Made by a program: the position numbers and the translations under genes. From an uncultured Lachnospiraceae bacterium (GTDB taxonomy: Bacteria; Bacillota; Clostridia; Lachnospirales; Lachnospiraceae), in NCBI GenBank assembly GCA_947626985.1, contig CANQUG010000030.1, positions 1 to 43,694 on the forward strand: a stretch of DNA of 43,694 nt, read 5' to 3'. Within the stretch, counting starts at the first letter, position 1; every line of letters begins with the position of its first letter. The notes under the pieces were generated by a model. It had not been told where the DNA came from, did no database searches, and saw only the letters and a program-made list of their open reading frames with translations. This document shows, one piece after another, positions 1-42,546 of this stretch.

Positions 1-905
1 TTAATCAAGGTGTGGTAACAATTAATCTTCCCGATGTCGCTTTGAGCTCTAAGGGAGATTTCGCAGCTTTTGATGATATTTTGAAGGATCGTCTGGAAAA
101 TCTCTGCTATCCGGCTTTGATGGCCAGACATCAGCGTCTGAAAGGGACGAAATCAAATATTGCACCGATTCTCTGGCAATATGGTGCATTAGCCCGTCTG
201 GATAAGGACGAAACAATCGACCCACTTCTCTTTGATGGATATTCTACCATCAGTCTTGGATATGCCGGCCTGTATGAATGTGTGAAGTATATGACCGGAG
301 AGTCTCATACTGCAGGCGGCAAAGAGTTCGCTTTGCATGTCATGGATATTCTCAATGAATATACGGCTAAGTGGAAAGCCGAGACCAATATTGATTTCAG
401 TCTTTATGGCACACCGCTGGAATCCACAACTTATAAATTCGCCAAGTGCCTGCAAAAACGGTTTGGGGTGATCCCCGGAGTAACGGATAAGAATTATATT
501 ACGAACAGTTATCATGTCCATGTAACGGAGCCTATCGATGCTTTTACCAAATTATCCTTTGAAGCGGAGTTTCAGGCTCTCAGTCCTGGCGGGGCGATTA
601 GCTATATTGAGGTGCCGAATCTGAGTCATAATATTCCGGCCGTTCTTGCTGTTATCAATTATATTTATGAGCATATTATGTACGCGGAATTGAATACCCG
701 AAGTGATTATTGTCAGGTATGTGGGTTCGAAGGAGAGATTAAAACGGTAGAAGACAATGGCAAGCTGGTTTGGGAATGCCCGGCATGCGGAAACAGAGAC
801 CAGAATAAGATGAACGTGACTCGCCGAACCTGCGGTTATATCGGTACAAACTTCTGGAACCAGGGGCGTACGCAGGAGATCTCAGAGAGGGTGCTGCATC
901 TATAA
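1..905 (+). CDS. nrdD: Anaerobic ribonucleoside-triphosphate reductase, C-terminal part (5' end outside window)
   Basis: This enzyme reduces ribonucleoside triphosphates to deoxyribonucleotides without oxygen, using a glycyl radical made by NrdG. The frame is open to the window edge and reads NQGVVTINLPD, an internal NrdD segment, so the GTG at 12 is not a real start. Near the C-terminus two Cys-x-x-Cys pairs (CQVC and CPAC) form the zinc site, followed by RRTCGYIGTNFWNQG, the glycyl-radical loop; the Gly of CGY would carry the radical. About 300 residues are visible, under half of a normal NrdD. No nrdG lies in the window. Location among phage genes suggests a phage-encoded nucleotide-supply enzyme, but the left prophage border is not visible. 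Confidence 0.93.
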   Translation, partial: NQGVVTINLPDVALSSKGDFAAFDDILKDRLENLCYPALMARHQRLKGTKSNIAPILWQYGALARLDKDETIDPLLFDGYSTISLGYAGLYECVKYMTGESHTAGGKEFALHVMDILNEYTAKWKAETNIDFSLYGTPLESTTYKFAKCLQKRFGVIPGVTDKNYITNSYHVHVTEPIDAFTKLSFEAEFQALSPGGAISYIEVPNLSHNIPAVLAVINYIYEHIMYAELNTRSDYCQVCGFEGEIKTVEDNGKLVWECPACGNRDQNKMNVTRRTCGYIGTNFWNQGRTQEISERVLHL

Positions 906-9209: not shown

Positions 9210-9293
9210 AGGAAGTAAGAGAGACGAATGTTGTTGGTGAAAATCCAACCTTCTACGAGGAGTTCGATCCTCCCTCGTAGCCTTTTCTTTTTT
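9210..9293 (+). ncRNA. Candidate small RNA between element B and a terminator
   Basis: No open frame with a ribosome site fits here. Two hairpins are seen: GTTGG/CCAAC (about 9233-9249, 7-base loop) and CTACGAGG/CCTCGTAG (9253-9260 and 9273-9280), the second followed by CCTTTTCTTTTTTT. With the putative promoter element directly upstream, this looks like a transcription unit of about 80 nt. A tRNA was considered and rejected. Existence of the RNA is inference. Confidence 0.4.
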
Positions 9294-9294
9294 T
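9253..9294 (+). terminator. Rho-independent terminator
   Basis: The 8-bp stem CTACGAGG/CCTCGTAG with a 12-base interior that can extend as GGAG/CTCC, followed by CCTTTTCTTTTTTT. It ends the short unit before element copy C. Confidence 0.7.
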
Positions 9295-9327
9295 CGCAAA
9301 ATAATCATCTCCTTTAATGAAAAGAGA
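9294..9327 (+). promoter_or_regulatory. 34-nt repeated intergenic element, copy C (diverged)
   Basis: TCGCA then a diverged middle then CCTTTAATGAAAAGAGA. It matches copy B at about 27 of 34 bases; the ends and the CCTTTAATGAA core are kept. It lies directly after a terminator and 33 bases before the ATG at 9360, consistent with a promoter for that gene. Confidence 0.5.
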
Positions 9328-9359
9328 AGAAACTTTAATTCTTGAAAGGAGATTTTATT

Positions 9360-9722
9360 ATGAAAGAGCGTATTGAAATTGTAGATTTTCAGAAGGAAGC
9401 GAAGAGACGTCAGAGGAAGGCGAAAATTCAGAGCACATTAAACAGTGTTGGAAAATGGATTGGAAATAACAAAGAAATGATTCTGATTCTCGGCCCGGCA
9501 GCGCTTGGAACGACCACAGCTGGAATAAAAGCAGTGAGCAAGCATGTGTCACAGGGAAAAGAGAAGAAACTGAAAGAAAATTATTGTTATGATCGGTCAT
9601 TAGGCCACTACTGGAAATTGCGCAGGGAATTGACAAATTCTGAATGGGTGGAAATCGACAGAAGAAAGAACAATGGAGAGAGATTGGCAGACATTTTGGA
9701 AGAATTGAAAGTGTTAAAGTGA
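9360..9722 (+). CDS. Conserved phage protein with one hydrophobic segment
   Basis: 120 residues. A basic N-terminal region (KEAKRRQRKAK) is followed by one hydrophobic stretch, MILILGPAALGTTTAGIKAV, which may be a membrane helix or buried helix. The C-terminal YDRSLGHYWKLRREL and GERLADILEELKVLK segments look conserved. ATG 9360 has AAAGGAG about 10 bases upstream; the TTG at 9342 overlaps that site and is rejected. It is alone between element C and a terminator. Family known to me only as hypothetical phage protein. Confidence 0.65.
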   Translation: MKERIEIVDFQKEAKRRQRKAKIQSTLNSVGKWIGNNKEMILILGPAALGTTTAGIKAVSKHVSQGKEKKLKENYCYDRSLGHYWKLRRELTNSEWVEIDRRKNNGERLADILEELKVLK

Positions 9723-9738
9723 ATCGAAAAAAAGAACG

Positions 9739-9778
9739 AAAGACTGTGAGATCAACACGGTCTTTCTTCTTTTGCTTG
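9739..9778 (+). terminator. Rho-independent terminator
   Basis: GAAAGACTGTG pairs with CACGGTCTTTC (11 pairs, one G-U) around a 7-base loop, followed by TTCTTTTG. It ends the 9360-9722 gene. Confidence 0.75.
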
Positions 9779-9804
9779 GTTTATTATCTGGAGGTTAAAT
9801 TAAG

Positions 9805-10707
9805 ATGGACGAAATGGTGTATAACTATTTATCCCATCATGGCATTCTCGGTCAGAAGTGGGGCGTTCGGAATGGTCCGCCTTATCCTTTAGGCGGAGGA
9901 GATTACACTGCACGGGAAAAGAGAGAGATTTATAAGAAAAGGAAACAGCGAAACAGTATCTACAATAAAAAGCATTTCGACGAGGTGTTGAGCGCTGACA
10001 AAACAACTCTCAGCACTCTTTCTTATGATAAAAACAGAACACAAAATACAAACATGTTTTATGCAACTCATGATATATTTGACAAAGCTCAGTATACTGC
10101 TCTGTTTAATCGAAAAGCCCCGCAAGCTGTATATGATAAAAATGGAAAATACATTGGAACTAATTTCTGCCTGAAATTTCGGATTAACAATTCGTTAAAG
10201 CAAAATGTGAAGGTTGCCAGTGAAGATTCCGGAGCGGAGTTGTTTGCGCAGTTGTATAAGAAAGATCGGGATTTTTACAATTTTGTGACAGATAAAAACC
10301 GGATGCAAAGTTATTTTGTAAGTGACAAGTATAAGTTCAGAGGATATCGGGAATCCAAAGCTGTCCTTGAAAAATTGAAGGACAAAGACTATGAACCAAC
10401 TGAAGATGATATCAAAACATTATATCGGATGTTTAATTATGTCGTACCTTATGACGGTCAGGGAAATGCACGTTCTGGAAAAGATGTTTACACGCAGCGA
10501 ACGAAGTTTTTTAATGCCTGTAAAAAGGCAGGATACGGTGCTGTTCTTGACACTAATGACGCCATATACGGAGGATTCAAGGCAAAGTCGCCGGTAATCA
10601 TGTTCGATATGGAACAAATAATTCCCAAGAATGTGTATCAAACAAAAATGAGTGACAAGAGAGTTGCTGAACTTATGCTTTGGGGCAGAAAGATGATGGG
10701 TTTATAA
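9805..10707 (+). CDS. HHG-tagged phage protein, possible ADP-ribosyltransferase-like domain
   Basis: 300 residues. Residues 6-30 are the tag YNYLSHHGILGQKWGVR continuing NGPPYPLGGGDY, shared at DNA level with genes at 10732, 14045 and 14569. After a basic linker comes a domain with NTNMFYATHD, RKAPQAVYDKNGKYIG, VASEDSGAELF and a C-terminal KAGYGAVLDTNDAIYGG...SPVIMFD segment. The latter recalls the end of ADP-ribosyltransferase folds (a G-Y-x-A-x-x-D...P-x-I-x-F pattern), but the catalytic signature is not clear. GGAGG lies upstream of the ATG. The tag suggests a virion-associated protein; the enzymatic idea is weak inference. Confidence 0.7.
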   Translation: MDEMVYNYLSHHGILGQKWGVRNGPPYPLGGGDYTAREKREIYKKRKQRNSIYNKKHFDEVLSADKTTLSTLSYDKNRTQNTNMFYATHDIFDKAQYTALFNRKAPQAVYDKNGKYIGTNFCLKFRINNSLKQNVKVASEDSGAELFAQLYKKDRDFYNFVTDKNRMQSYFVSDKYKFRGYRESKAVLEKLKDKDYEPTEDDIKTLYRMFNYVVPYDGQGNARSGKDVYTQRTKFFNACKKAGYGAVLDTNDAIYGGFKAKSPVIMFDMEQIIPKNVYQTKMSDKRVAELMLWGRKMMGL

Positions 10708-10731: not shown

Positions 10732-11247
10732 ATGGATGAAATGACGTATAACTATTTATCTCATCATGGCATTCTCGGTCAGAAGTGGGGTGTAAGAAGA
10801 TACCAGAATAAAGATGGTACATTGACTGAAGAAGGTAAAAAACGCTATGACCGTGATGTACGAGAAAATCTCGCAAAAAAGAAGGATAATCGTATTGATA
10901 CCTCAAAACCGGATCCGAACAGATGGGTCAAAGAAGATCTAAAACGGACGAAAGATGCTGTGGACGCAAGTTCCAATCTCATGAGACAGATGAATGATGT
11001 TGAGATGCGTACGCGAAAATCACAGATGGATTTGTCACAGATGAGTGACAAAGAGCTCAGGGATAAAATAAACAGAAAGCTTTTGGAGCAGCAATACGAA
11101 AAACTTTACTCCGACCTGAATCCGGAAACTATTTCAAAGGGTCGTGCATATGTTCACGATATTTTGGAGGTTGCCGGCACAGTTCTTGGTTTGACAAGTT
11201 CTGCATTGGGCATAGCTTTGTCAATTAAAAACCTGACGTCTTCATAA
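10732..11247 (+). CDS. HHG-tagged phage structural-type protein
   Basis: 171 residues. The tag is YNYLSHHGILGQKWGVRR followed by YQNKDGTLTEEGKKRY, the long form seen in clostridial phage minor head proteins (recollection). The middle is a charged helical region (DPNRWVKEDLKRTKDAVDAS...LSQMSDKELRDKI) and the C-terminus has a hydrophobic helix (EVAGTVLGLTSSALGIAL) that may insert into membrane. GAGGGAGG precedes the ATG. It may be ejected with DNA or sit inside the capsid; this is inferred from the tag and position. Confidence 0.72.
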   Translation: MDEMTYNYLSHHGILGQKWGVRRYQNKDGTLTEEGKKRYDRDVRENLAKKKDNRIDTSKPDPNRWVKEDLKRTKDAVDASSNLMRQMNDVEMRTRKSQMDLSQMSDKELRDKINRKLLEQQYEKLYSDLNPETISKGRAYVHDILEVAGTVLGLTSSALGIALSIKNLTSS

Positions 11248-13450: not shown

Positions 13451-14030
<580 letters not shown>

Positions 14031-14044
14031 AAAGGAAAATCAAA

Positions 14045-14563
14045 ATGGATAAATTAGTATATAACTATTTATCCCATCATGGAATTAAAGGTCAGAAGTG
14101 GGGTGTAAGAAGATACCAGAATAAAGATGGTACCTTAACATCTGCCGGTAGAAAGAGATATGGTGGGGGAACGAAACGTGCTAACAAAAAGGCACAGGAG
14201 GAGAGAGCAAAACTTGTCGATCAGGCAAATCATATGGCTGAGACGGAGAAAACACAGGCTAAGTACGATAAGGAGTATTATCAACTTCTTCAAAAAGAAG
14301 GCGAACATGGAGAAACAATGAAAGCTCTGTATGGCGATGATTCGGATGATGAAATAAAAAACATATGGGGAGAATCTCTGAAAGATCTATGGAATGAGGA
14401 TATATCCTACTACATGGAAGCTGAAGCATCCTCTATTCGCCGTGGCGAGAAATATACGAAATACGCAAAGGAACTTATGAATATGGATATATCTAAAGCT
14501 TCCAAAAAAGAAGTAACCAAACGGGCAAACAAATTATTGTTTGATATAATGAATGAGGAGTAA
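14045..14563 (+). CDS. HHG-tagged phage protein
   Basis: 172 residues. The N-terminus is YNYLSHHGIKGQKWGVRR plus YQNKDGTLTSAGRKRYGG, nearly identical in DNA to the tag of the 10732 gene. The rest is a highly charged helical domain (KAQEERAKLVDQANHMAE..., ISYYMEAEASSIRRGEKY...) with no membrane segment and no known catalytic motif. GAAAGG and the AATCAAAATGG start context precede the ATG. The following HHG gene starts 6 bases after its stop. It is probably a virion or cargo protein by analogy. Confidence 0.72.
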   Translation: MDKLVYNYLSHHGIKGQKWGVRRYQNKDGTLTSAGRKRYGGGTKRANKKAQEERAKLVDQANHMAETEKTQAKYDKEYYQLLQKEGEHGETMKALYGDDSDDEIKNIWGESLKDLWNEDISYYMEAEASSIRRGEKYTKYAKELMNMDISKASKKEVTKRANKLLFDIMNEE

Positions 14564-35524: not shown

Positions 35525-36358
35525 ATGGCGAAACTTACAGATTACACGGAAGCTACCAGATTTGACAGTGGGGATATTCTTATCAAGGATGGTAAAAACG
35601 GCACAAAAAAGATAACGGCGGCGAATGCGGCTGCTGAGTTTGCGGGATTATTATCTCCAATCAATCATCGTAATGTCTGGAGAGGAAAAAATCTGGGGAC
35701 CAAAGTTACGGATGCTCAGAAAGCTGCAATCAAGGATGGTACGTTCGATGACCTGTATATCGGAGATTACTGGGTTATCAACAGCGTAAACTGGCGGATT
35801 GCGGATATGGATTACTGGCTTCGCTGCGGGGATACGGATTTTAATACCCATCATCTCGTGATCGTCCCGGATTCATGTCTCGGTGAGAACAAACCGATGA
35901 ACGAGTCCGGAAAAACTGAAGGCGGTTATCACGGATCCGAGATGTATACAACTACATTACCCAGCATAAAGACCACATATATTGATAAAGCATTTCCGAG
36001 TCTGGTGCTGACTCATAAAGAATACCTTACTAACGCAGTTACGGAGGGGCATCCGTCAGGTGGCGGATGGTTCGAGTCTACTGTCGAATTAATGAATGAA
36101 ATCATGGTCTATGGGTGTCCGATCTTTACACCGGCGAACACTGGAACAACAGTACCGACACTTTATACTATCAATAATTCGCAGCTTGCGCTGTTTCAGC
36201 TTAATCCACGAATGATCAAAACCAGGTACAATTATTGGCTGCGGGATGTGGTATCTGCGTCGCTCTTCGCGTTTGTGGTCATCAGCGGCGATGCGGGCAG
36301 CCGCTCCGCGTCGGATGCTTACATTGGTGTTCGTCCGGTCTTCGCGATTGGTTCGTGA
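35525..36358 (+). CDS. DGR target: variable C-type-lectin-like tail protein
   Basis: 277 residues. The N-terminal ~50 residues look like a tail-attachment part. Then come GKNLGTKVTDAQKAAI, LYIGDYWVINSVNWRIADMD and ELMNEIMVYG, common in clostridial phage receptor proteins. The C-terminus YNYWLRDV...ASDAYIGVRPVFAIG is the CLec (formylglycine-enzyme-like) fold end used by DGR variable proteins; residues 243-271 are the variable repeat. It should bind the host receptor at the tail tip. AGGAGG lies about 9 bases before the ATG. Confidence 0.93.
   Translation: MAKLTDYTEATRFDSGDILIKDGKNGTKKITAANAAAEFAGLLSPINHRNVWRGKNLGTKVTDAQKAAIKDGTFDDLYIGDYWVINSVNWRIADMDYWLRCGDTDFNTHHLVIVPDSCLGENKPMNESGKTEGGYHGSEMYTTTLPSIKTTYIDKAFPSLVLTHKEYLTNAVTEGHPSGGGWFESTVELMNEIMVYGCPIFTPANTGTTVPTLYTINNSQLALFQLNPRMIKTRYNYWLRDVVSASLFAFVVISGDAGSRSASDAYIGVRPVFAIGS
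36251..36338 (+). repeat. DGR variable repeat (VR)
   Basis: 88 bases aligning without gaps to the template repeat at 37405-37492. 22 positions differ, every one at an adenine in the template; the other 58 positions are identical. In frame it changes about 15 codons, mostly template AAC/AAT. The 3' portion ATTGGTGTTCGTCCGG is unchanged and serves as the initiation region. Confidence 0.97.
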
Positions 36359-36363
36359 AATCG

Positions 36364-36380
36364 CGGGGCCCTGTGCCCCG
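36364..36380 (+). other. GC-rich hairpin/cruciform downstream of the VR
   Basis: CGGGGC-CCTGT-GCCCCG: a 6-bp perfect GC stem with a 5-base loop, 26 bases after the VR and 6 bases after the stop codon. In known DGRs an inverted repeat at this place promotes target recognition for retrohoming; there is no T tract, so it is not a simple terminator. Confidence 0.7.
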
Positions 36381-36451
36381 AAAACTACGATTAATTACCG
36401 TACACAGGTTACTGAAAACTATGTTATAACACTGCGAAAAGGAGAATCAAA

Positions 36452-36760
36452 ATGGATGAAGTAAAATACAGCGTGAAACTCGCTGACGGTACAACTTTTG
36501 AAAACCTCGGCTTAAACGGAAATAACTTTATCTCATCGGAGAAAGTTGATGCTTCCGCTTTTGAATTGAATTGCTCACCGGTAACGATCAACGATGGAAG
36601 TAATGAAGAAGTTCATGAAAACATGGAACTTGTTCAGGTCACTCAGATGGGCGACGAATACTGGTTTATTCTTCGTGATCTGTCGGAGAGTGAACTGGCA
36701 CAGATCAAGCTCAGAGCTGATGTGGACTATATTGCGATGATGTCAGAGGTAGAACTTTAA
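36452..36760 (+). CDS. Conserved phage protein, unknown function
   Basis: 102 residues with beta-rich N-terminal (KYSVKLADGTTFENLGLNG NNF type) and a final helix ESELAQIKLRADVDYIAMM. Proteins of this pattern follow tail-fibre genes in many clostridial prophages (recollection). AAAAGGAG and the AATCAAAATGG context precede the ATG. It lies between the DGR target and the XkdX gene and may be a tail-fibre accessory or chaperone; function unknown. Confidence 0.65.
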   Translation: MDEVKYSVKLADGTTFENLGLNGNNFISSEKVDASAFELNCSPVTINDGSNEEVHENMELVQVTQMGDEYWFILRDLSESELAQIKLRADVDYIAMMSEVEL

Positions 36761-36774
36761 GAAAGGAGAAAGTC

Positions 36775-36918
36775 ATGCATAGCAATACTTACGAGAAAGT
36801 AAAGCGTTACTACATCCTTAAAATGTGGGACGAATCCAGAGTGAAAAACGCGGTTAAGATGAACTGGATTACGGAGGAGGAATTCCAGGAGATCACTGGA
36901 AATGCCTACTCTGCATGA
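36775..36918 (+). CDS. XkdX family protein
   Basis: 47 residues: MHSNTYEKVKRYYILKMWDE then VKNAVKMNWITEEEFQEITG. This is the typical short XkdX family pattern (K..YY..g.W....v..AV....IT.eEy.eITG), usually found just after the tail fibre genes and before holin. AAAGGAG is 6 bases before the ATG. Its stop overlaps the start of the next gene (ATGA), so the DGR accessory gene is translationally coupled. Confidence 0.88.
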   Translation: MHSNTYEKVKRYYILKMWDESRVKNAVKMNWITEEEFQEITGNAYSA

Positions 36919-37406
36919 GCGTTCTGGTAAGCGAGCGTAAAGAATCACAATTCGAAGTGGTAACATTTGCGGATGAATTAAGAAACATGATGATCGAGCT
37001 GATGCAGCGGCGGTTTGGAATAAAGAATCTGGAGCATATGGTGAGAGTACAATATGCTTATGGAAAGCTGACAACTGAGAACATTGAGTATTATCAGTCT
37101 GTACTGGCCTGTTCAAAACAGAATATTATGAATATTGCGGCTTTACTTACAAACAATGTAAGGGCCGCAAATTCACTTTATCCAGTTACCGAGGATGAAT
37201 GGCGAAAACGGCGTGACTTTCAAAATTCTGCAATAGTAAACTGTGAATTGCTGATTAAAGAGTTACAGCATATTGTGACTCTGTTTAACGTAGATGTTAA
37301 TATTTACGGCCGCTATATTAATGCGATAGATCGCGAGATTCATTTGATTAAGAGATGGCGTCAGAAAGATAATCGGACGATGTCGACCAAAAAGGGCAGT
37401 GTCTAA
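36915..37406 (+). CDS. DGR accessory protein, Avd-like
   Basis: 163 residues, almost wholly helical. After a short N-terminal strand come VVTFADELRNMMIELMQRRF, VRVQYAYGKLTTENIEYYQS, WRKRRDFQNSAIVNCELLIK and a final IDREIHLIKRWRQKD, consistent with the four-helix-bundle Avd family; the protein is basic enough to bind RNA. Avd forms a pentamer that works with the RT in cDNA synthesis. Position directly before the template repeat and RT is the typical DGR order. The stop codon overlaps the first two bases of the template repeat. Confidence 0.82.
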   Translation: MSVLVSERKESQFEVVTFADELRNMMIELMQRRFGIKNLEHMVRVQYAYGKLTTENIEYYQSVLACSKQNIMNIAALLTNNVRAANSLYPVTEDEWRKRRDFQNSAIVNCELLIKELQHIVTLFNVDVNIYGRYINAIDREIHLIKRWRQKDNRTMSTKKGSV

Positions 37407-37492
37407 ATATGCGTCGAACTTCGCGAATGTGAACAACAACGGCAATGCGAACAACAACAACGCGTCGAATACTAACATTGGTGTTCGTCCGG
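37405..37492 (+). repeat. DGR template repeat (TR)
   Basis: 88 bases, with 30 adenines. In the frame of the target it reads K Y A S N F A N V N N N G N A N N N N A S N T N then IGVRP: thirteen codons are AAC/AAT or ACT placed where the target varies, leaving the framework codons (GCG, TCG, GGC, GTG) adenine-free. The RNA copy serves as template for mutagenic reverse transcription. Confidence 0.97.
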
Positions 37493-37604
37493 ATTCCCTG
37501 ATTAACCAACAGGGAAGGAGATGCTGTCCGTTCCTCCATAAGGATAAATGAGAAAGCTGTACGCATTTACCACGGTAACTATCGCTAAAGACGGTGAATA
37601 ATTT
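37493..37604 (+). ncRNA. DGR RNA spacer between TR and RT gene
   Basis: 112 bases with no gene. It begins with the hairpin CCCTG (37496-37500) / CAGGG (37510-37514). In characterised DGRs the segment 3' of TR is required in the template RNA for priming and Avd/RT binding; this stretch has the right place and size. The RT ATG at 37605 has only a weak ribosome site (GGTG). Confidence 0.6.
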
Positions 37605-38825
37605 ATGACATATGAAGAGATGCTTTGTGACGCTAATAATTTGTATAAGGCCTACCTGGCTTCGGTAAAGGGCAGTAAATGGAAAAATTCCAGTCAGAGA
37701 TTTTCCCTGAACTATCTGCGTTATATTTTTCAGATTCAGAAAGATATTATGGATCGAACTTTGAAAAACGGGGTAGTAGACGAATTTGAACTGCATGAAC
37801 GAGGCCATGTCAGGCCTATTTCAAGTCTCAGAACACAGGATAGAGTAATCCGCCATGTTTTATGTGACGAGATTCTTCTTCCTGTGGTCCGAAATAAAAT
37901 TATCTATGATAACGGGGCTTCAATTAAAGGACGCGGTATTTCTTTCTCAAGGAAACGTTTTGACGTACATCTTCAAAAATATTACAAGGCACATGGGCGT
38001 AATGGATATATTCTGTTTGGAGATTTCTCAAAGTTTTATGACAATATTGTTCATGAAATCGCCAAAGCAGATTTGGTGAAGCTGTTCGACGATGATGAGT
38101 TTATGGAATGGCTGCTGACTCTTATATTTGAGGGATTCAGAATAGATGTTTCCTATATGACAGACGAAGAATACCTGAAGTGTATGGGCAGCATATTCAA
38201 CAAGTTGGAATATAGAAAAATCCCTAAAGAAAAGCTGACGGGAGAAAAGTTTATGGAGAAATCGGTAAATATAGGAGATCAGATATCACAAATTCTTGGG
38301 ATTTATTACCCACATCGTATCGATACGTATGTCAAGTATGTTCGTAGTCAGAAATTCTATGGGCGGTATATGGATGACTGGTATATTATAAACCAATCAA
38401 AAGAAGAGCTTATTGACCTTTTGGAAAACATCCGAATGATTGCAGCAAGCCTTGGAATTCATATAAATGAGAAGAAAACAAAAATAGTCCCTATTGATCG
38501 CAGCTTTAAATATCTGCAAATTACTTATACTATGACGGAATCCGGAAAAATATACAAGAAAATCGATAAGAAAAAAGTAACGGTTATGAGAAGAAAGCTT
38601 AAGAAACTTGCCGTGAAAGTAAATCAGGGAGATTTGAAATACGAAGCGGTGGAAGAAATGTTTCGAAGCTGGATGTGTAACTATTATAAATTAATGTCCA
38701 GGGACCAGCGGCGCAATATGCTGTCTTTATATGAGGAGCTATTTGGCAAAACTATCCGGATTAAGAAAAAGAAAATGGAATTCCTGGGAGGTGATGGACA
38801 TGGATACACCGATTGCAAGAGCTGA
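37605..38825 (+). CDS. DGR reverse transcriptase
   Basis: 406 residues, normal for a DGR RT. Motifs: a VRPISSLRTQDRVIRHVLCD region, NGASIKGRGISF (motif 2), LFGDFSKFYDNI with catalytic Asp at about 140 (motif A), SVNIGDQISQILG with the DGR-typical I-G-x-x-x-S-Q at about 223-229 (motif 4), and GRYMDDWYII with YMDD at about 255-258. A basic C-terminal thumb follows (KKVTVMRRKLKKLAVK). It makes error-prone cDNA at template adenines. No maturase or endonuclease domain is present, unlike group II intron RTs. It overlaps the next gene. Confidence 0.96.
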   Translation: MTYEEMLCDANNLYKAYLASVKGSKWKNSSQRFSLNYLRYIFQIQKDIMDRTLKNGVVDEFELHERGHVRPISSLRTQDRVIRHVLCDEILLPVVRNKIIYDNGASIKGRGISFSRKRFDVHLQKYYKAHGRNGYILFGDFSKFYDNIVHEIAKADLVKLFDDDEFMEWLLTLIFEGFRIDVSYMTDEEYLKCMGSIFNKLEYRKIPKEKLTGEKFMEKSVNIGDQISQILGIYYPHRIDTYVKYVRSQKFYGRYMDDWYIINQSKEELIDLLENIRMIAASLGIHINEKKTKIVPIDRSFKYLQITYTMTESGKIYKKIDKKKVTVMRRKLKKLAVKVNQGDLKYEAVEEMFRSWMCNYYKLMSRDQRRNMLSLYEELFGKTIRIKKKKMEFLGGDGHGYTDCKS

Positions 38826-39108
38826 GCATGAGGAATTTGCGAAAAGAGTAGAGGAAGAAAATAACCGTCAGAACCACCGTATTGAGCTATTGGAAGAAAC
38901 CATGAGGCAGTACAATGCTGTTGTAACGAATGTAGAAAAGCTTGCTGTTAATATGGAAAGTATGCTGAAAGAGCTGGAACGGCAAGGTAATCGGCTGGAA
39001 GTGCTGGAAGCCCGTGATGGGCAGATGTGGCGTACAGTTGTAGGGTACGTCATTACGACAGTGATAGGAATTGCTGTAGGCTTCATTGCGACACATATTG
39101 GATTGTAA
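38800..39108 (+). CDS. XhlA-like protein
   Basis: 102 residues, MDTPIARAEHEEFAKRVEEE, a long coiled coil (RIELLEETMRQYNAVVTNVE...), and one C-terminal membrane helix (VVGYVITTVIGIAVGFIA). This is the usual layout of the XhlA/hemolysin family that aids phage lysis. ATG 38800 is chosen because GGGAGGTG lies about 9 bases upstream; the ATG at 38794 is too close. It overlaps the RT gene by 26 bases. Confidence 0.85.
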   Translation: MDTPIARAEHEEFAKRVEEENNRQNHRIELLEETMRQYNAVVTNVEKLAVNMESMLKELERQGNRLEVLEARDGQMWRTVVGYVITTVIGIAVGFIATHIGL

Positions 39109-41242: not shown

Positions 41243-41314
41243 TCTTTTTTATGTTAAAATTTGGCGAAGACATTCTATATGGTGTTCTTTCCCCGAAAGA
41301 AAGGAGCGAAAGTA

Positions 41315-42451
41315 ATGGGCAAATCATTGAAGGGGAAGGAGCTTGGAAAAGGGATTAGTCAGCGTAAGGATGGCCTGTATCAGGCTCGATTTACTGACAG
41401 ATTTGGCAAGAGGCGGACTGTTTATGCTAAAACTTATACGGAGATAACTCAAAAGCTTCGTCAGGAACAGTATAACGATGAAAAACAACTGAACGTCGTT
41501 GACTCAAATATTACTCTTAACGAGTGGTTTGACATCTGGAAAGATACGTATAAGAGAAATTGCAGAGATACTACAATGAATACGTATCAAATTCAATATA
41601 ACAGAATTAAAAACGAACTGGGATGGAGAAAACTATCCGACTTATCATCGGTTGTCATTCAAAAAGCATTTAATCAGTTAAAAAGCGATGAATCCAGAAA
41701 ATCAAGTAAAATAGTTTTGATAGATATGCTCAATCGTGCCGTCGAGGCTGATTTGATAATTAAAAATAATGCGTTGAAAATAACTACAAAACTGAATAAC
41801 TATGACAAAAAAGAAAAAAGAGTATTGACGGAAGAAGAAATTGATATTTTATACTCTTATTCTGAAGGAAGATATATTAATCGGATTATTAAAGTTGCAT
41901 TGGGGACTGGAATGCGCATCGGAGAGATCATAGGTTTAACTTGGGATTGTATTGATTTTTCTAAAAATCTTATATACGTTAATAAAACACTTTGTTATCT
42001 TACGGATAACGGCAAATCTCCATACGAGTTTCACGAGCCGAAGACAAAATCTAGCAAAAGGGTGATACCAATGTCATCACTTGTTAAACATGCTTTACTG
42101 GAACAACTTGAATTTGTAAAGAACGTAACAGACAATAATACACCATTAGAAGGATTCGAAAACCTCGTTTTCACAAGCAGGACAAATCGTCCGCTGCATG
42201 TCAGCCATGTAACCCGTATGATAGATACTATTGTACGCAGGATAAATAAGGATGGAATCGAGTTCGAACGTTTTGGTCTGCACTGTTTAAGGCATACCTT
42301 TGCCACAAATTGTATTGCAAAAGGAATGAACCCTAAAATACTTCAAAAAATTCTAGGACATACCACTCTTCAGATGACTATGGATTTATATTGTCATGTT
42401 AGGGATGATATGATCATGGAAGGAATGAAGACAGTGATGAAAATGGCATGA
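41315..42451 (+). CDS. int: Tyrosine recombinase / phage integrase
   Basis: 378 residues. N-terminal AP2-like/arm-binding part (GISQRKDGLYQARFTDRFGK RRTVYAKT type), SAM-like core-binding domain (LNEWFDIWKDTYK), then the catalytic domain: Arg in GTGMRIGEIIGL, Lys/beta-hairpin KTKSSKRVIPM, H-x-x-R in LHCLRHTFATN, His in LGHTTLQ and Tyr in MDLYCHV. ATG 41315 follows AAAGGAG; the upstream in-frame ATG at 41261 is rejected because it has no ribosome site. It lies at the prophage end next to tgt, so it inserted the phage into this intergenic site. Confidence 0.95.
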   Translation: MGKSLKGKELGKGISQRKDGLYQARFTDRFGKRRTVYAKTYTEITQKLRQEQYNDEKQLNVVDSNITLNEWFDIWKDTYKRNCRDTTMNTYQIQYNRIKNELGWRKLSDLSSVVIQKAFNQLKSDESRKSSKIVLIDMLNRAVEADLIIKNNALKITTKLNNYDKKEKRVLTEEEIDILYSYSEGRYINRIIKVALGTGMRIGEIIGLTWDCIDFSKNLIYVNKTLCYLTDNGKSPYEFHEPKTKSSKRVIPMSSLVKHALLEQLEFVKNVTDNNTPLEGFENLVFTSRTNRPLHVSHVTRMIDTIVRRINKDGIEFERFGLHCLRHTFATNCIAKGMNPKILQKILGHTTLQMTMDLYCHVRDDMIMEGMKTVMKMA

Positions 42452-42546
42452 ATGGTGTAAAAGTGGTGTAGTATGTAAATAAAAAGTTCACAAGACCTTT
42501 AAAACTCTAGCTTCTCTAGAAAAAATTATTGGAAAGAGGACATTTC
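42452..42546. other. Prophage/host junction region (attachment site should lie here)
   Basis: 95 bases between the integrase stop and tgt. It contains the inverted repeat TCTAG/CTAGA (about 42508-42522) and the tgt ribosome site. Base composition changes from AT-rich phage to GC-rich host just after it. The attachment core cannot be defined without the other prophage end. Confidence 0.45.

What the first reader, a model, noticed from the sequence alone, without database searches (positions are those of the whole stretch)
35525..38825. Complete diversity-generating retroelement targeting a phage tail protein
Seen: VR 36251-36338 and TR 37405-37492 align without gaps; 22 of 30 template adenines differ in VR and none of the other 58 bases do. 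Next to them are an Avd-like helical protein and an RT with YMDD and the SQ motif. Known: adenine-specific mutagenic retrohoming defines DGRs (Bordetella BPP-1 type). Inference: the phage diversifies its receptor-binding tip against gut bacterial surfaces.
Basis: partly seen in the sequence, partly recalled or inferred. Interest (0 to 1): 0.85.

Follow-up and report, generated by a model that had tools for sequence, protein, structure and literature searches.

The report
Prophage retroelement that mutates its adhesin
A dormant virus in a bacterial genome carries a known kind of machine that rewrites the end of its own predicted attachment protein, and the same template has also rewritten a second, small gene about 61,000 bases away; the machine is ordinary, the distant second target is the interesting part.

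Summary
It is a diversity-generating retroelement (DGR) with Avd, TR and an open DGR-type RT, in a prophage of about 75 kb beside tgt. The account is incomplete: contig C16 abuts the window (77-base overlap, its only partner) and holds a second VR of the same TR about 61 kb upstream (56 of 58 non-adenines kept, 18 of 30 adenines changed). It lies in T2, a small stand-alone relative of the variable domain of the predicted tail target. T2-like genes are remote DGR targets in other prophages too: 25 of 31 tested match a TR of their own genome, and a hairpin follows 43 of 48. Here T2 lacks the hairpin and a third copy has decayed, so the remote arm looks frozen. Two-target phage DGRs are in print (Shimadzu, Lelie, Quimbyvirus). 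New member of a known kind; T2's function is open.

The parts
35525..36358 (+). T1, target protein (277 aa), predicted tail adhesin; C-terminal DUF6273-like domain
   Evidence: PF19789 E 8.6e-4, 19.6 bits, below its cut-off of 23.5; residues 111-276 homologous to the stand-alone T2 family, hhalign 99.2%, E 1.9e-19
36251..36338 (+). VR1, variable repeat
   Evidence: 58/58 non-A identical, 22/30 A changed against TR
36364..36380 (+). Hairpin after VR1: 6-bp GC stem, 5-nt loop CCTGT
   Evidence: hairpins at the like place after tail-gene VRs of relatives
36452..36760 (+). Small ORF of unknown function between target and Avd; a similar ORF stands there in the second DGR (C103)
   Evidence: no family hit
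36775..36918 (+). Small phage protein, phrog_134 (function unknown)
   Evidence: E 7.1e-17
36915..37406 (+). Avd, accessory protein
   Evidence: PHROG 3206 'Avd protein of DGR' E 6.5e-6; no Pfam or NCBIfam hit
37405..37492 (+). TR, template repeat, overlaps the avd stop codon
37480..37604 (+). Conserved, possibly structured RNA segment: 3' end of TR and spacer to RT
   Evidence: 24-sequence alignment A4; 8 of 24 predicted pairs with changes on both sides, 0/500 shuffles reach this, but 8 of the 9 such cells come from one sequence, L008
37605..38825 (+). Reverse transcriptase (406 aa), YMDD, GDQISQ
   Evidence: PHROG 1423 E 1.8e-62; tree
38800..39108 (+). XhlA-like ('hemolysin' in PHROGs) gene after the RT
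   Evidence: phrog_937 E 1.1e-19
41261..42451 (+). Tyrosine integrase of the prophage
   Evidence: Pfam Phage_integrase E 7.5e-31
42532..42545 (+). Probable attR, 14-base repeat shared with C16:24344 (probable attL), at the 5' end of tgt
   Evidence: tgt by Pfam TGT E 8.2e-158
1..77 (+). Overlap with the end of contig C16, inside nrdD; links the window to the part of the prophage with the remote targets
   Evidence: the NRDD profile is split 1-300 on C16 and 278-562 in the window

Best explanation
A prophage-borne DGR. RNA that covers TR and the spacer is copied by the RT with Avd; template adenines are misread; the mutated cDNA replaces the VR at the 3' end of a target gene, guided by the end of the VR and the hairpin behind it. 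The main target is T1, a predicted tail adhesin. The same TR also rewrote VR2 in T2, a small stand-alone version of T1's variable domain elsewhere in the same prophage (about 61 kb upstream as integrated, about 12 kb downstream of the RT in the excised circle). In relatives such small genes mostly carry a hairpin and keep matching the template; here T2 has no hairpin and T3 has decayed, so I infer that T1 is still a live target and T2 and T3 are frozen. Shown by sequence: the TR/VR relations, gene order, hairpins and their absence, homology. Inferred: the copying steps (from BPP-1), present activity, the adhesin role, and T2's role, most likely an intracellular binder in phage-host or phage-phage conflict.
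For: VR1: 58/58 non-A, 22/30 A. VR2: 56/58 non-A, 18/30 A, log10 P about -8.3. A pattern with template adenines set free and up to 3 mismatches finds three places in 64 genomes of the genus, all in this genome (VR1, TR, VR2); reversed control 0. C16 is the only other match to the window's first bases, exact over 77 bases, inside one gene: the NRDD profile runs 1-300 on C16 and 278-562 in the window. T1 and T2 share the variable domain. Relatives: contig G064 has one TR and three VRs (tail 61/64 non-A; two remote, 63/64 each); isolated phage Fontainebleau has VRs in a tail-region gene (42/43) and in a T2 gene (65/66) between DNA polymerase I and helicase; 25 of 31 T2 genes match a TR of their genome, and in 23 of these 25 the same TR matches a VR beside the RT. 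T2 diversity is 0.20 in the VR, 0.05-0.08 in the body and 0.01-0.02 around stop and hairpin in two groups of 10. The hairpin-less second copy on L114 and L119 (identical, one event) has a decayed VR, 40/63; T3 too, 49/70 to the C103 TR and 49/64 to the G064 TR. RT tree.
Against: No reads, so no direct proof that the DGR is active here or that T1 varies and T2 does not. T2 lacks the hairpin yet matches TR at 56/58, so the loss must be recent or the hairpin is not strictly needed; in BPP-1 residual hairpin-independent activity was seen (PMC3240598, passages). L120 keeps 59/59 and L092 64/64 with imperfect hairpins. The hairpins have 5-nt loops, unlike the 4-nt GRNA loops in PMC3240598. 5 of 31 T2 genes matched no TR and one (L095) matched another VR. 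In a looser group of 8 T2 genes the VR stands out less (0.25 against 0.12-0.21 in the body). The C-type lectin fold could not be confirmed: T1 model pLDDT 44.7. The tail role of T1 is by position only. The 14-base att repeat could be chance.
Confidence: 0.85

Rival explanations
1. VR2 in T2 was made by recombination with VR1 of T1 (gene conversion), not by retrohoming from TR.
For: T1 and T2 share the domain; 6 template-A sites carry the same change in both; weak excess of similarity between the two VRs of one genome at template-A sites (0.359 against 0.318, permutation p 0.044, n=19 with near-duplicates).
Against: Of 30 template-A sites, T2 keeps the A at 8 where T1 has changed and has a different base at 8 more, so T2 derives from TR or a near copy. 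In 23 of 25 genomes both VRs match one TR.
Confidence: 0.06
2. The element is a relic: intact by eye but no longer active.
For: T2 and T3 have no hairpin; no reads or population data for this strain.
Against: RT frame open and with motifs; VR1 keeps 58/58 template bases, and its hairpin is present.
Confidence: 0.15
3. T2 is a virion or injected protein, so that both targets act outside or at entry, not inside the cell.
For: Same variable domain as the predicted tail target; virion content untested.
Against: In Fontainebleau T2 lies between DNA polymerase I and helicase; DUF6353-type genes lie within about 6 kb in 37 of 47 loci and an N6 methylase gene in 13 of 47; no membrane-like stretch in 39 T2 sequences (highest 19-residue mean hydropathy 1.23, against 2.17 for a DUF6353 protein). 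No formal signal-peptide prediction was run.
Confidence: 0.2
4. The A-specific differences come from adenine deamination or another mutator, not from an RT.
For: Changes are limited to template A.
Against: A changes to G, T and C (10, 8, 4), while the TR next to an RT keeps its adenines.
Confidence: 0.01

Closest known systems
Bordetella phage BPP-1 DGR (prototype; PMC3240598, abstract and passages)
   Same: VR near the 3' end of a target gene, TR, RT with A-specific infidelity, hairpin behind the VR; Avd (recalled)
   Different: Here a remote second VR in the same prophage, a DUF6273-like target domain, and a hairpin with a 5-nt loop instead of the 4-nt GRNA loop
Roseburia phage Shimadzu DGR (record LR596903; two targets mentioned in PMC11792537, discussion read; primary paper not held)
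   Same: Tail fibre VR beside the RT and a second VR in a small early gene, orf43, homologous to the T2 family (hhalign 99.3%, E 3.4e-20), near DNA methyltransferase genes
   Different: RT on another branch. Window T2 has no hairpin; the stretch behind orf43 was not examined
Faecalibacterium phages Lelie and CP11 (PMC11792537, sections 30, 31, 33 read)
   Same: One TR, a large and a small DUF6273 target; in Lelie the small one lies about 16 kb from the TR
   Different: Lelie's small target is not clearly a T2 homologue (hhalign 52.6% over 41 columns); CP11 was not examined here
Quimbyvirus DGR (PMC8008677, passages read)
   Same: One VR in a gene after the tail fibre genes, one in a distant, presumably non-structural gene near methyltransferase genes
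   Different: Bacteroides phage, RT said to lie in overlapping ORFs in three frames; sequence not compared here
Acutalibacter phage Fontainebleau (ON453893; PMC10197239, one passage: listed as an induced prophage; DGR not mentioned in its main text)
   Same: Same two-target layout with a T2 gene (56% identical to window T2)
   Different: Another hairpin; RT on a sister branch

Membership tests
Diversity-generating retroelement | TR/VR pair differing at template adenines only | tested here: met
   58/58 non-A kept, 22/30 A changed
Diversity-generating retroelement | RT of the DGR group: YxDD and a GxxxSQ motif (motif recalled), clustering with DGR RTs | tested here: met
   YMDD, GDQISQ; inside a 23-row branch (97/94) that holds all 12 other rows labelled DGR or TR/VR-verified, apart from the group II-like QGG.xSP rows; some SQ-bearing RTs of unknown type lie outside. 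Best solved relative 8ub7, E 5.7e-9 (that it is the BPP-1 enzyme is recalled). PADLOC gives only generic RT hits, best E 8.6e-16
Diversity-generating retroelement | Accessory protein (Avd) near TR and RT | tested here: met
   PHROG 3206 E 6.5e-6
Diversity-generating retroelement | Hairpin/cruciform element shortly after the VR | tested here: met
   36364-36380 for VR1; its loop differs from the published GRNA consensus
Diversity-generating retroelement | Variable residues on a C-type lectin (or Ig) scaffold | tested here: inconclusive
   DUF6273 similarity below cut-off; structure model too poor (pLDDT 44.7); DUF6273-like domains reported C-lectin-like in PMC10743442 (passages)
Diversity-generating retroelement | Ongoing diversification of the VR | not testable with these tools
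   No reads
Two-target phage DGR (tail gene plus distant small gene, as in Shimadzu) | Second VR of the same TR in a distant small DUF6273-like gene of the same phage | tested here: met
   C16:33083-33170, 56/58 non-A, 18/30 A; same prophage by the 77-base overlap
Live remote target of the T2 type | VR matching the TR of the same genome and a hairpin behind the gene | tested here: not met
   Window T2 matches TR (56/58) but neither T2 nor T3 has the hairpin, against 43 of 48 T2 loci; window T2 is therefore not filed as a live target
Group II intron or retron RT | RT clustering with, or scoring as, those RTs | tested here: not met
   Group II-like rows fall outside the window's branch; TIGR04416 55 bits against a cut-off of 300, retron St85 22.4 against 235. 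No verified retron row was in the tree

The most novel reading that the evidence does not exclude
One template serves two recognition surfaces: an outer one (tail adhesin) and an inner one (T2, a hypervariable early protein that works inside the infected or lysogenic cell against a varying host or rival-phage partner). Loss of the small hairpin behind a target acts as an evolutionary switch that freezes a chosen variant, as seen for T2 and T3 in this prophage.
Probability: 0.35. Interest if true: 0.8.

Novelty: new member of a known kind. Interest (0 to 1): 0.5.

Why it matters
The DGR itself is ordinary. What matters is that searching only near the RT misses targets: PMC8144416 (passages) says its large survey would not detect remote ones. 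Here a family of small genes turns out to be such targets in many prophages (11 of the 23 genome records are titled Lachnospiraceae), with a hairpin as a recognisable tag. It makes a testable question of why a phage would hypermutate a protein that is probably not part of the virion, and supplies natural hairpin-less variants to test what keeps a target live.

Tried and rejected
Trans-action between two elements: at first the VR on C16 looked like a target in another prophage; the 77-base overlap and the split NRDD match showed it is the same prophage. VR3 (C16:50490-50566) looked like a target of the second DGR of this genome (C103), but has many non-A mismatches (49/70) and no hairpin, so I treat it as decayed.

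The first TR/T2 comparison scanned one strand only and missed RTs on the minus strand; one search corrects it (its null: one mononucleotide shuffle per gene, plus strand only). L095's match is to another VR and is left out of the 25. One search left out L095 and the five T2 genes without a match. One search examined 48 of the 52 loci (not L003, L094, L098, L112). One search left out the two C16 copies and has no T2 row for 10 of 47 loci, whose T2 frame the gene caller did not choose; its family also holds one tail-type target (L099). One RT (L163) was dropped from the tree as not found by the script.

Structure of T1: model too poor to search. Solved structures by profile: none for T1 or T2. 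Rfam: one hit, E 0.69, below its threshold. Plasmids: no T2 match. Lelie's small target as a T2 homologue: not supported. T1-T2 similarity within genomes: p 0.044 with near-duplicates in the set, taken as no evidence.
Full report
Observation. Every number in the finding holds. VR 36251-36338 and TR 37405-37492 align without gaps; 58 of 58 non-adenine template bases agree and 22 of 30 adenines differ, to G (10), T (8) and C (4). The chance that 22 differences all fall on the 30 adenines is about 10^-13.7, not corrected for choosing the alignment. Around them lie the 277-residue target (T1, 35525-36358), a small ORF, a phrog_134 protein, Avd (PHROG 3206, E 6.5e-6), TR overlapping the avd stop codon, and an RT with YMDD and GDQISQ (PHROG 1423, E 1.8e-62).

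What the RT is. In a tree of 34 RTs the window RT sits in a 23-row branch (97/94) with all 12 other rows labelled DGR or with a verified TR/VR pair, while group II-like RTs with QGG.xSP lie outside. Some other SQ-bearing RTs of the genus, of unknown type, also lie outside, and no verified retron was in the tree. NCBIfam group II and retron models score far below their cut-offs; PADLOC gives only generic RT hits. The closest solved chain is 8ub7 (E 5.7e-9), which I recall as the BPP-1 enzyme. The stretch from the TR end to the RT start is strongly conserved in 24 relatives. Its predicted pairs covary more than shuffles (8 of 24 pairs with changes on both sides, 0 of 500), but 8 of the 9 such cells come from one divergent sequence, L008, and one from the window, so the structure is only suggested.

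Surroundings. The window is part of a prophage with terminase, portal, head protease, tail, lysis and integrase genes, next to tgt. A 14-base repeat at 42532 recurs at C16:24344, the probable att sites. The last 77 bases of contig C16 equal the first 77 of the window, and no other place in the genome matches the window start. The NRDD profile is matched at 1-300 by the C16 end and at 278-562 by the window start, so one gene runs across. The prophage is then about 74.9 kb by these coordinates.

The second target. TR matches one more place in the genome at high quality: C16:33083-33170, 56 of 58 non-adenines kept, 18 of 30 adenines changed (log10 P about -8.3). A pattern with the template adenines set free, up to 3 mismatches, found three places in 64 genomes of the genus, all in this genome; the reversed control found none. 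At the 30 template adenines T2 keeps A at 8 where T1 has changed, differs from T1 at 8 more, agrees with T1's change at 6, has changed alone at 4, and both keep A at 4: two separate copies of the template. VR2 ends the gene of a 184-residue protein, T2, about 61 kb upstream of TR in the integrated prophage and about 12 kb downstream of the RT in the excised circle, by the coordinates. The C-terminal part of T1 (111-276) and the T2 family are homologous (hhalign 99.2%, E 1.9e-19). A third gene, T3 (C16:50034-50580), shows only a decayed resemblance (49/70 to the TR of a second DGR in this genome, 49/64 to that of G064).

Relatives. Profile scans found T2-like genes at 29 viral and 23 genome loci. 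A hairpin lies directly behind the gene in 43 of the 48 loci examined; the five without a perfect one are L092 and L120 (imperfect), L111 and L132 (truncated frames) and L135. In a second count 46 of 51 family members have it, 40 of these with the loop CTTGT. 30 of 46 records or genomes with T2 carry a related RT at E up to 1e-8 (L118 was not searched). Of 31 T2 genes in these, 25 match a TR of the same genome (pooled without L095: 1527/1544 non-adenines kept, 377/591 adenines changed; scores 44-75 against a best shuffled score of 12); L095 matched another VR, and five did not match: L103 (contig ends at the RT), L127 (broken RT), L132 (truncated), L133 and L135. Some of the 25 are near-duplicates (L087/L088, L100/L128). 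In 23 of the 25 the same TR also matches a VR beside the RT (not in L120 and L129). In two groups of ten T2 genes diversity is 0.20 in the VR, 0.05-0.08 in the body and 0.01-0.02 around stop and hairpin; a looser group of eight shows 0.25, 0.12-0.21 and 0.10. Contig G064 has one TR and three VRs. The isolated phage Fontainebleau has VRs in a tail-region gene (42/43) and in a T2 gene (65/66) between DNA polymerase I and helicase.

Hairpin loss. The window's T1 has the hairpin (36364-36380); T2 and T3 have none. Compared with the 71%-identical T2 of L071, the stretch with the hairpin is missing behind window T2. The second T2-like copy on L114 and L119, the same sequence in both, has no hairpin and a decayed VR (40/63). 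I infer that loss of the hairpin ends diversification and that window T2 lost it recently; the number of independent losses behind this is small. PMC3240598 (abstract and passages read) shows by experiment that the hairpin is needed for efficient homing in BPP-1, with residual activity without it.

Known or new. A DGR in a prophage is ordinary. Two-target phage DGRs are in print: PMC11792537 (sections 30, 31, 33 read) for Lelie, CP11 and Lagaffe_CP and, by citation, Shimadzu; PMC8008677 (passages) for Quimbyvirus; PMC10743442 (passages) for nd4 and nd12. I found Shimadzu's second VR in orf43, a T2 homologue, so the T2 kind has probably been met before as 'a protein of unknown function'. In my literature searches (open-access library only, listings with a few papers opened) I saw no description of T2 as a family, of hairpins behind its members, or of their loss. 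PMC8144416 (passages) states that remote targets would be missed by its survey.

Role of T2. Position, neighbours (DUF6353-type genes in 37 of 47 loci, an N6 methylase gene in 13 of 47) and lack of a membrane-like stretch suggest a protein acting inside the cell, perhaps in conflict with host defence or rival phages. This is inference; virion content is untested. Gut origin and receptor are likewise untested.

Noticed in passing
G000 contig C103 (L051), RT at 9258-10433 (-), TR at 10514-10621 (-): A second, related DGR (RT 72% identical) in the same genome. The contig ends just where its own target gene should lie, and no other close T1 homologue was found in the assembly; a varying VR may have broken the assembly.
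   Followed up: partly
C16:50034-50580 (L070): T3, a further DUF6273-like gene with a decayed VR-like end and no hairpin.
   Followed up: partly
window 9805-10707, 10732-11247, 13451-13744, 14045-14563; also C16 just after T2: Several ORFs share an N-terminal HHG-KGQKWGVR-like stretch; one (13451-13744) ends in a long lysine run from a poly-A tract.
   Followed up: no
G064:C1:23454-24550 (-): The RT of this relative matches in two pieces (residues 1-294 and 319-392), so it may be broken although its VRs are close to TR.
   Followed up: no
L113: A distant T2 relative followed by a hairpin with a 10-bp stem and GAAA loop, which fits the published GRNA loop type.
   Followed up: no
L090, L091, L096, L100, L108, L114, L117, L118, L119, L124, L125, L128, L130: These loci carry two T2-like genes a few kb apart; an N6 DNA methylase gene lies within about 6 kb of T2 in 13 of 47 loci.
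   Followed up: partly
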